A DNA stretch of 64,000 nt from Luteimonas panaciterrae (GTDB lineage Bacteria > Pseudomonadota > Gammaproteobacteria > Xanthomonadales > Xanthomonadaceae): the NCBI RefSeq assembly GCF_020511115.1, contig NZ_JAJAVH010000007.1:62001-126000 (forward strand), read 5' to 3'. Each line of letters opens with the position of its first letter. Position 1 is the first letter of the stretch. The notes beneath the pieces were generated by a model. The model was not told where the DNA came from. It was given only the letters and a program-made list of their open reading frames with translations, and did no database searches. The translations under genes and the position numbers were made by a program. This document shows positions 38,441 to 40,901 of this stretch, piece after piece.

Positions 38441-38558
38441 GCCCGCTGACGCCCAGAGCCTGCGACCAAAGTCGTAGGCCCGAAATCCCCCTCATTGCGG
38501 CATTGCGCATTGACCTTGGCCCGTCCCCGCGCGACCCTGCGCCATCGCTCGGAGAACA
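38441..38558. other. Intergenic spacer before nested repeat
   Basis: 118 bp after the LysR stop. It contains a segment at about 38530-38552 that resembles 38713-38735 inside the adjacent nested repeat (both end ATCGCTCGG). No gene or clear promoter is visible. Confidence 0.4.
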
Positions 38559-38823
38559 GGGCCTATCGTCAGGTATGGAAGGGGTCGCGTTGCTTCTCAA
38601 AGGCCGTCAGGTGGTGTCGCGCGGCGCGGCGCCTTGCTACCTGCAAGGTCAAGCCGTGCGGCGCCGCACGGCGGCCTTTGAGAAGCAACCCGAAAGGCCG
38701 GGTCTGCGGACGCGCGATGCCGCGTCATCGCTCGGTCGTGGATCGACATCCACTCCTTCGCTCTTCCTTGCCTCGCACGTCCGCAGACCCGGCGCGACCC
38801 CTTCCATACCTGACGATAGGCCC
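38559..38823. repeat. 265-bp nested inverted-repeat element upstream of cstA
   Basis: Outer arms are 31 bp and perfectly complementary (38559-38589 with 38793-38823). Inside them stand two further hairpins. The left one has perfect 18-bp arms (38589-38606 with 38672-38689) and encloses an 18-bp palindrome at 38654-38671. The right one has perfect 16-bp arms (38697-38712 with 38778-38793). The whole would fold as a long stem with two side arms. The right outer arm stops 5 bp before the cstA ATG and includes the only ribosome-site-like GATAGG. It is either a mobile or intergenic repeat family or a regulatory RNA structure. Confidence 0.85.
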
Positions 38824-38828
38824 TACCA

Positions 38829-40901
38829 ATGAAGAACGGTTTCGGCAAGCTGACGTGGGCGGCGCTCGCCATCATCGGCGCCTTCTGTCTCGGCACGATC
38901 GCGCTGCGTCGCGGCGAACAGATCAACGCCTTGTGGATCGTGGTCGCGGCGATTTCGCTGTACCTGATCGCCTACCGCTACTACGCGCTGTTCATCGCCA
39001 ACAAGGTGTTGCAGCTCGATCCCACGCGCTCGACGCCAGCCGTGCTCAACAACGACGGCCTCGACTACGTACCGACCAACAAGCACGTTCTGTTCGGTCA
39101 CCACTTCGCCGCGATCGCCGGTGCGGGCCCGCTGGTCGGCCCGGTGCTGGCGGCGCAGATGGGCTACCTGCCCGGCCTGCTCTGGTTGATCGTCGGCGTG
39201 GTGTTCGCCGGCGCCGTGCAGGACTTCGTCGTGCTGGTGCTATCTTCGCGCCGCAACGGCCGTTCGCTGGGCGATCTGGTACGCGAGGAGATGGGCCAGA
39301 TTCCAGGCACCATCGCCCTGTTCGGCGCCTTCCTGATCATGATCATCATCCTCGCCGTACTGGCGATGGTGGTGGTGAAGGCGCTGGCGGTGAGCCCGTG
39401 GGGCATGTTCACCGTGGTGGCAACGATGCCGATCGCCATCCTGATGGGCGTGTACATGCGCTACATCCGTCCCGGCAAGATCGGCGAGATTTCGATCGTC
39501 GGCGTGGCCCTGCTGCTGTTCTCGATCTGGCTGGGCGGCAAGGTCGCCGCCGATCCGGTCTGGGGACCGGCTTTCACCTTCAGCGCCACGCAGATCACCT
39601 GGATCCTGATCGGCTACGGCTTCGTCGCCTCGGTGTTGCCGGTGTGGCTGCTGCTGGCGCCGCGCGACTATCTCTCCACCTTCCTCAAGATCGGCACGAT
39701 CATCGCGCTGGCGATCGGCATCTTCGTCGTGATGCCCGACCTGAAGATGCCTTCGCTGACGCAGTTCACCAACGGTGACGGCCCGGTGTGGAAAGGCGGC
39801 ATCTTCCCGTTCCTGTTCATCACCATTGCCTGCGGCGCGGTTTCCGGTTTCCACGCGCTGATTTCTTCCGGCACCACGCCGAAACTGTTGGCGAGTGAAG
39901 GCCATGCGCGCTACATCGGCTACGGCGGCATGCTGATGGAATCGTTCGTGGCGGTGATGGCGCTGGTGGCGGCATCGATCATCGAACCGGGCGTGTACTT
40001 CGCCATGAACAGCCCGCCGGCCGTGGTCGGTACCGACGTGCAGGCCGTCGCGGCCACCGTGTCGCAATGGGGTTTCACCATCACGCCCGACCAGCTGGAA
40101 GCCACGGCACGCGAGATCGGTGAGACCACCGTGCTCGCCCGCGCCGGTGGCGCGCCGACGCTGGCCGTCGGCATCGCGCAAATCCTGCACAGCGTGCTGC
40201 CCGGCGAAGGCATGATGGCGTTCTGGTACCACTTCGCGATCCTGTTCGAAGCATTGTTCATCCTCACCGCGGTGGACGCCGGCACGCGCGCCGGCCGCTT
40301 CATGCTGCAGGACCTGCTCGGCAACTTCATTCCGCCGCTGCGCCGCACCGAATCGTGGACCGCCAATCTCATCGCCACCGCGGGCTGCGTGGCGTTGTGG
40401 GGCTATCTGCTCTATCAGGGCGTGGTCGATCCGTTCGGCGGCATCCAGACGTTGTGGCCGCTGTTCGGCATCTCCAACCAGATGCTGGCGGGCATCGCGT
40501 TGATGCTCGGCACCGTGGCGCTGTTCAAGATGAAGCGCGACCGCTACGCCTGGGTGTGCGCGGTGCCCGCGGCATGGCTGGTGATCTGCACGAGCACCGC
40601 CGGGTTGATCAAGATCTTCGACAGCAATCCCGCGCAGGGCTTCCTGGCGCAGGCCGGCAAGTTCCAGAAGGCGATCGCCAGCGGCGAGATCGCCGCGCCC
40701 GCGAAGTCGGTGGAACAGATGCATCAGGTGGTCACGAACGCCTACGTCAACACCGGGCTGACCGCGCTGTTCCTGTTCGTGGTGTTCAGCGTGCTGATCT
40801 ATTCGGTGCTGAGCATCGTCAAGGCACGTCGCAATCCACAGCGCACTGACAAGGAAACGGCATACGTCGAACTCGATCCGCGGCAACTGGCGAACTTGTG
40901 A
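38829..40901 (+). CDS. cstA: CstA-type carbon starvation protein / pyruvate transporter
   Basis: 690 aa, the normal length, with about 16-18 hydrophobic segments. Landmarks are [50 protein letters not shown] and a [20 protein letters not shown] helix. CstA/BtsT proteins import pyruvate or peptides when carbon is scarce. The YbdD partner follows with a one-base overlap. No good ribosome site stands outside the repeat element that ends 5 bp upstream, so translation could depend on whether that structure is folded. Confidence 0.95.

What the first reader, a model, noticed from the sequence alone, without database searches (positions are those of the whole stretch)
38559..38823. 265-bp three-armed inverted-repeat element touching the cstA start
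Perfect 31-bp outer arms enclose two hairpins with perfect 18- and 16-bp arms, plus an 18-bp palindrome. The two inner hairpins share their end bases with the outer arms, so the element folds as a compact three-way junction. The right arm contains the only ribosome-site-like sequence for cstA. It could be a new intergenic repeat or MITE, or an RNA switch that hides the ribosome site of a pyruvate/peptide transporter.
Basis: seen in the sequence. Interest (0 to 1): 0.7.

Follow-up and report, generated by a model that had tools for sequence, protein, structure and literature searches.

The report
Jumping DNA element encoding folded RNA
The 265-base palindromic stretch in front of a bacterial transporter gene looks like one copy of a family of small jumping DNA elements, found in many related bacteria, whose folded shape has been kept by matching mutations even though its sequence has changed.

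Summary
In detail: 38559-38823 is an element with long outer arms and two hairpins, folding far better than shuffles (z about -18). It is not a cstA switch. It is one copy of a dispersed family with terminal inverted repeats (a MITE family). A pattern for its inner loop matches 45 of 299 genomes of the order, up to 51 times in one. Copies ending in GG have TA duplicated on both sides (40 of 68); copies ending in GA have TNA duplicated (60 of 173). An IS5-family insertion sequence in one copy-rich genome has nearly the same ends. The closest relative lacks the element at cstA; here it cut the ribosome site off from the start codon. The surprising part: the stems covary strongly (79 of 100 pairs with two-sided changes; 96.4% of cells paired, slid controls 34-41%), wobble pairs favour one strand, and copies lie in sense with co-directional neighbours 87:39. 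So the fold seems selected, as RNA or single-stranded DNA. Against selection within host mRNA: stem quality does not depend on host transcription direction. Function unproven.

The parts
38559..38823 (+). The mobile element (265 bp, GG-ended full-length copy)
38559..38589 (+). P1 left arm; its first bases (GGGCCT...) are the terminal inverted repeat
38793..38823 (+). P1 right arm with the other terminal inverted repeat
38824..38825 (.). TA, right copy of the target dinucleotide; the left side (38557-38558) now reads CA, so the duplication is not intact here
   Evidence: TA is the rule for GG-ended copies
38589..38689 (+). P2 hairpin: variable covarying lower stem (P2a) and conserved upper part (P2b) with standing U.G pairs in the family
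38697..38793 (+). P3 hairpin
38725..38770 (+). Conserved 46-nt top of P3, used as the family search pattern
38738..38753 (+). Inner hairpin GTGGAT-CGAC-ATCCAC at the tip of P3, covarying in the family
38550..38554 (+). CGGAG, likely original ribosome site of cstA, cut off from the ATG by the insertion
38829..40901 (+). cstA (carbon starvation protein CstA), the gene downstream of the insertion

Best explanation
The 265 bp are one copy of a family of non-autonomous transposable elements (MITEs) of the order that holds Luteimonas, Lysobacter, Dyella and Rhodanobacter. Shown: it is dispersed, bounded by terminal inverted repeats, missing at this place in relatives, and many copies are flanked by duplicated TA (GG-ended) or TNA (GA-ended). 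Suggested by shared ends and target sites: GA-ended copies are moved in trans by IS5-family transposases. Inferred: GG-ended copies are moved by a related, TA-duplicating IS that I did not find. Shown: the interior folds into a multi-arm junction whose stems are kept by compensatory changes while their sequence drifts, wobble pairs are better tolerated on the + strand, copies lie preferentially in sense with co-directional neighbouring genes, and a stop codon often touches the end of the element. Inferred: what selection sees is the single + strand, most likely RNA, and the fold helps the element to be tolerated at gene ends and inside operons. At cstA the insertion falls between ribosome site and start codon and probably changes cstA expression as a side effect.
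For: Copies: own genome, 13 of 61 relatives, 45 of 299 genomes of the order with 0 for the control pattern. Duplications: 60 TNA among 62 identical 3-bp flanks in 173 GA-ended places; 40 of 68 GG-ended places with TA on both sides and none with a 3-bp duplication. Empty site upstream of cstA in the closest relative and absence in 22 of 22 other printed loci. Recent burst: 11 near-identical copies in G067, all with TA on both sides. IS5-family IS with ends GAGCCTGTTCAAAGTCTC between TNA triplets in G241; copies there differ from it by one base in 18 at best, copies elsewhere match all 18. Covariation: 79 of 100 pairs with two-sided change, 0 of 500 shuffles, slid controls 45-51. Double Watson-Crick changes between closest copies rise 4, 61, 119 over 19, 19 and 16 independent pairs. 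Strand: P2a 55 G.U to 16 A.C changes, P2b 235 to 12 cells. Orientation 87 to 39, p 2.3e-5; stop codon touching the element in 79 of 178 genes pointing at it.
Against: No RNA-seq or experiment. Wobble ratio and mismatch load do not differ between copies in sense (144:64 in 65 copies) and antisense (62:29 in 33 copies) to both neighbours, which speaks against selection in the host transcript after insertion. P1 wobbles are nearly even (49:37), and in the P3 set A.C cells exceed G.U (46 to 22). The helper IS of the TA type was not found; the own genome gave no hit to PF13340, PF01609 or PF13359. The left duplication of the window copy is not intact (CA against TA).
Confidence: 0.75

Rival explanations
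1. Ordinary MITE without RNA function: arms stay complementary through DNA-level events at palindromes (template switching, intrastrand correction), and the fold is a by-product.
For: P1 wobbles are nearly even, 49 G.U to 37 A.C. Stem quality does not depend on host transcription direction. Known bacterial MITE transcripts fold into long stem-loops anyway (PMC2229807, part 1 of 3 read).
Against: P2a changes are 55 G.U to 16 A.C and P2b keeps U.G pairs; a correction process should remove them. Orientation bias 87:39. Mismatches are inherited within the G067 burst, so arms are not rebuilt at each jump.
Confidence: 0.3
2. Host-used intergenic element: like REP or ERIC sequences it stabilises upstream mRNA or dampens downstream genes, and copies are kept for that.
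For: Stop codons touch the element in 79 of 178 cases; sense bias; the same junction holds a copy in several species.
Against: Patchy presence: 12 of 37 genomes of the genus. The stop-codon position is also what a TNA or TA target would give. No difference between sense and antisense copies in stem quality.
Confidence: 0.25
3. The + strand works as single-stranded DNA, in transposition or replication, instead of RNA.
For: Strand preference of wobbles is the same whatever the host transcription direction.
Against: Ends, duplications and partner are those of a DDE-type IS, which is not known to need single-stranded substrate (recalled). Orientation with respect to genes is not random.
Confidence: 0.1
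4. A cstA-specific leader switch that hides the ribosome site.
For: It lies in the cstA leader and ends 5 nt before the ATG.
Against: Absent from 22 of 22 other printed cstA loci; the family lies beside many unrelated genes; no Rfam match near a gathering score in 10 loci.
Confidence: 0.03

Closest known systems
ERIC/IRU, YPAL and Correia/NEMIS elements
   Same: Small non-coding repeats between genes, with TIRs or palindromic ends, target duplication (TA termini in several) and transcripts that fold into long stem-loops (PMC2229807, part 1 of 3 read).
   Different: Those are about 100-200 bp (same source); here 265 bp, with two end types and two duplication lengths on one core, and covarying stems. 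I did not compare their sequences directly.
IS5 family, IS1031-like and IS427-like subgroups
   Same: Terminal repeats GAGCCTG/GAACCTG and TNA duplication shared with an IS5-family IS; the subgroup duplications TNA and TA are recalled.
   Different: The element codes for no transposase; the interior is unrelated to the IS as far as seen; no TA-type IS was found.
BOX and RUP elements of Streptococcus pneumoniae
   Same: Interspersed, transcribed, folded small repeats; RUP is proposed to be moved by an IS630-type transposase (PMC2229807 part 1; PMC3049150 listing and start of abstract only).
   Different: Other hosts, other ends, other transposase family.
REP / BIME palindromes
   Same: Dispersed palindromes between genes (PMC3733652, listing and start of abstract only).
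   Different: REPs are 20-40 bp there; here 265 bp with terminal repeats and target duplication.

Membership tests
MITE (non-autonomous IS derivative) | Short, no transposase gene, many dispersed copies | tested here: met
   265 bp; 248 distinct places collected; no protein family searched inside, but the stems vary too much for a conserved frame
MITE (non-autonomous IS derivative) | Terminal inverted repeats | tested here: met
   28 of 323 motif hits had no arms by my rule
MITE (non-autonomous IS derivative) | Target-site duplication | tested here: met
   TNA in 60 of 173 GA-ended and TA in 40 of 68 GG-ended places; decayed in the window copy
MITE (non-autonomous IS derivative) | Same ends as an autonomous IS in the same genome | tested here: met
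   GA type only: G241 and G035. For the GG/TA type no IS was found
MITE (non-autonomous IS derivative) | Actual transposition in trans | not testable with these tools
   Only indirect: near-identical burst in G067 and the empty site
IS5 family (partner IS) | IS5-family DDE transposase | tested here: met
   ORF B of L221 passes the NCBIfam IS5 cut-off (139.2 against 110 bits); ORF A hits the same model under its cut-off and DUF4096 over it
Known structured RNA family (Rfam) | Match over gathering score | tested here: not met
   10 loci scanned; two hits far under threshold
cstA riboswitch or leader switch | Conserved upstream of cstA in relatives | tested here: not met
   Absent in 22 of 22 other printed loci
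ERIC, YPAL, NEMIS, BOX, RUP | Sequence relation to those families | not tested
   Only described in papers seen in part; sequences were not compared

The most novel reading that the evidence does not exclude
A mobile structured-RNA class: a selfish folded domain (P2 and P3) that rides on the ends of two kinds of IS5-family transposons and is selected on one strand because its fold softens its own insertions, closing itself off in the mRNA so that stop codon, ribosome site and start codon on both sides still work together. A DNA transposon would then reduce damage to its host by RNA shape instead of by splicing.
Probability: 0.25. Interest if true: 0.85.

Novelty: new variant of a known kind. 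Interest (0 to 1): 0.62.

Why it matters
Bacterial MITEs are usually seen as decaying leftovers of insertion sequences. Here a MITE core has been kept in shape by compensatory mutation across at least seven genera, with one strand favoured and a sense orientation bias. That makes the question whether the folding of a bacterial MITE transcript matters to the element or to its host directly testable. It also adds a repeat family to genomes of Luteimonas, Dyella, Rhodanobacter and relatives, where it interrupts gene junctions and leaders.

Tried and rejected
cstA switch: rejected by the empty sites.

Stems rebuilt from one arm at every transposition: rejected, since the consensus of 11 near-identical G067 copies holds mismatches in P1, P2b and P3 that the copies share.

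Looping-out that keeps ribosome site and start codon together: fits the window copy and some others by eye, but ribosome-site-like sequence left of the element is not enriched in copies close to a start codon (13 of 52 at 0-12 nt against 14 of 64 at 61-200 nt, made with a weak gene rule). It is kept only in the novel case.

Selection within the host mRNA: predicted a difference between sense and antisense copies; none was found (two searches asked the same with weak gene callers and also saw no clear difference).

Gene-strand calling: my first callers used G+C by codon position or ORF length in ways that can tie or nearly tie between strands. Searches exposed it: one search gave 88:24, the same score without the two added element bases gave 62:43 (p 0.078), and longest-ORF calling leaned the other way, 46:67 (p 0.059); strict variants called few copies (19:12, 5:3, 8:3, 2:1). 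I replaced them by a codon log-odds caller trained on 255 ORFs from these loci and the window, consistent with its mirror image in 190 of 190 copies. Only its figures are used for orientation, stop codons and the final context test; margins 5, 15 and 40 give 92:40, 87:39 and 79:31. It left 33 of 223 copies uncalled at the main setting, the window copy among them; 25 further copies had flanks too short. One search was a failed control for the stop-codon position and is not used, so that count has no separate control beyond the spread of distances (51 genes at 1-50 nt, 39 at more than 50 nt, 9 open).

TA-type autonomous IS: TIR pattern and PF13359 search in G067 gave none. Plasmid and phage collections: no match. 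Viral contigs: 0 exact pattern matches.

Paper searches that listed no description of this family: (open-licence PMC library only). Seen: listings and starts of abstracts, part 1 of 3 of PMC2229807 and four passages of PMC10969869.

Rows dropped: places seen twice because named records and G handles overlap (293 to 248); copies with N; 28 of 323 motif hits without arms; copies outside the full-length range in the alignments. A1 holds 55 of the 98 diverse copies picked from 151 full-length ones. still held some duplicates; one search repeats them without and is the one cited.

Full report
What is there. The window lies on G000:C77.

It is a family. BLAST against the own genome gives, besides the element and its own arms, nine other places; two of them at contig ends (L006, L007) look like halves of one copy. 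Of 61 relatives, own genome included, 13 have matches, 12 of them in the genus (37 genomes). A pattern for the top of P3, with up to 3 mismatches, is found in 45 of 299 genomes of the order, in 15 of 85 genera, up to 51 times in one genome, and the backward control pattern in none. Named records are Luteimonas, Lysobacter, Pseudoxanthomonas, one Xanthomonas, Dyella, Rhodanobacter and Fulvimonas, plus MAGs and unnamed relatives. BLAST against plasmid and phage collections and the exact pattern in viral contigs gave nothing.

Ends and target. Of 248 distinct places, 213 copies are longer than 215 bp and 29 shorter than 200 bp. Six short ones that I looked at folded (L008, L009, L013, L044, L065, L117) have P1 and P3 and no P2; L273 keeps a P2 stub. 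GA-ended copies have identical 3-bp flanks in 62 of 173 places, 60 of them TNA (TAA 16, TGA 21, TCA 14, TTA 9). GG-ended copies have TA on both sides in 40 of 68 places and never an identical 3-bp flank. TNA and TA are the duplications that I recall for the IS1031 and IS427 subgroups of the IS5 family. It is a nested double structure: the inner pair of ends lies between TAA and TTA, the outer pair between TGA and TGA. Copies in that genome differ from these ends by one base in 18 at best; copies in Dyella tabacisoli (L152), Rhodanobacter sp. C06 (L178) and G165 (L065) match all 18. In G035 the IS at L228 and the copies share GAACCTGTTCACGATC, one copy 17 bases. Movement of GA-ended copies in trans by IS5-family enzymes is the natural reading. 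For the TA type no helper was found, and the own genome gave no hit to PF13340, PF01609 or PF13359.

The cstA copy. In the closest relative (L191, 91% identical over the start of cstA) the sequence before and including the ATG is CTCGGAGGGCTGGCTATG. In the window it is CTCGGAGAAC, element, TACCAATG: 18 nt in both if the element is taken out. None of 22 other printed loci has the element there. It ends 5 nt before the ATG and separates it from CGGAG. By eye, TTGACC (38510-38515 in the window) is present upstream of cstA in 20 of the 22 relatives and GACCAAAGTC (38464-38473) unchanged in 13, so the cstA promoter is probably upstream of the element and the element is probably transcribed with cstA (inference).

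The fold. On 55 full-length copies (alignment A1), a 100-pair structure (the RNAalifold pairs plus four pairs that I added in the P3 loop) has 96.4% of 5490 cells paired, 79 pairs with changes on both sides and a covariation score of 0.579. None of 500 shuffles reached this; slid partners gave 34-41% paired, 45-51 pairs and 0.071-0.100. The structure comes from this alignment, which favours it over the slid ones. Many stem positions show all four Watson-Crick pairs. Between closest independent pairs of copies (19, 19 and 16 pairs at under 5, 5-10 and 10-16% divergence), single changes dominate at first and double Watson-Crick changes rise from 4 to 61 to 119. In P1 some of these could be exchanges of whole ends instead of compensation; P2a alone has 0, 13 and 33. 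Arms are not re-copied at each jump: 11 near-identical G067 copies share inherited mismatches.

Which strand. P2b has standing U.G pairs (235 G.U against 12 A.C cells; that structure was predicted on the + strand). P2a changes are 55 G.U against 16 A.C (p 4e-6), P1 49 to 37, P1, P2a and P3 stem together 119 to 63. In the P3 set it is the other way, 22 G.U to 46 A.C; the two outer hand-added pairs hold 30 unpaired cells. By RNA energy the + strand is the better one in 91 of 111 copies. So the single + strand, RNA or DNA, seems to matter for P2, while P1 behaves more like plain DNA ends.

Where it sits. With a codon-usage strand caller that is mirror-consistent in 190 of 190 copies, one vote per site cluster gives 87 copies in sense with both neighbours, 39 antisense to both, 30 divergent and 21 convergent; 87 against 39 has p 2.3e-5. 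My earlier callers were faulty and are set aside (see Tried and rejected). Of 178 genes that point at an element, 79 have a stop codon touching or overlapping its end, which a TNA or TA target would favour. Equivalent junctions in different species can hold copies with quite different stems (L064/L142, L085/L182) or what looks like one copy drifting (L062/L158/L173).

Result against the host-mRNA reading. If stems were selected in the host transcript after insertion, sense and antisense copies should differ. They do not: G.U to A.C is 144:64 in 65 sense copies and 62:29 in 33 antisense copies, with 1.69 and 1.58 other mismatches per copy. Either the stems were selected earlier in the mobile lineage, or the relevant strand is not the host mRNA. 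The orientation bias then needs its own explanation.

Verdict. A MITE family that I did not find described, ordinary in its mode of movement and unusual in how well its folded core is kept. Nine paper searches of the open-licence library found no description; subscription papers and repeat databases were not searched.

Noticed in passing
38528-38552 and 38711-38735: 25-nt direct repeat (84%) between the cstA leader just left of the element and a part of P3. The leader copy is also in the element-free relative L191, so it is older than the insertion; chance or not is open.
   Followed up: partly
38464-38473 and 38510-38515: GACCAAAGTC and TTGACC upstream of cstA are conserved in many Luteimonas relatives (13 and 20 of 22 by eye): likely operator and -35 box of cstA.
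   Followed up: no
38730-38761 (tip region of P3): In the family this internal loop has covarying pairs around a constant UC/UC mismatch: looks like a defined binding motif.
   Followed up: partly
L062, L158, L173: Copies at the same gene junction in three Rhodanobacter-type genomes; the neighbouring proteins look like ParA and ParB by eye (no family search).
   Followed up: no
L064/L142 and L085/L182: Equivalent junctions in two species hold copies with largely different P2 stems, as if a copy had been replaced or the site hit twice.
   Followed up: no
L221:1365-2597: The IS5-family IS of G241 is a nested partial duplication with an extra 70 nt on the left and 317 nt on the right between two sets of ends.
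   Followed up: partly
L288:538-679: G067 holds a 142-bp element with the same ends as its 265-bp copies; its interior was not examined.
   Followed up: no
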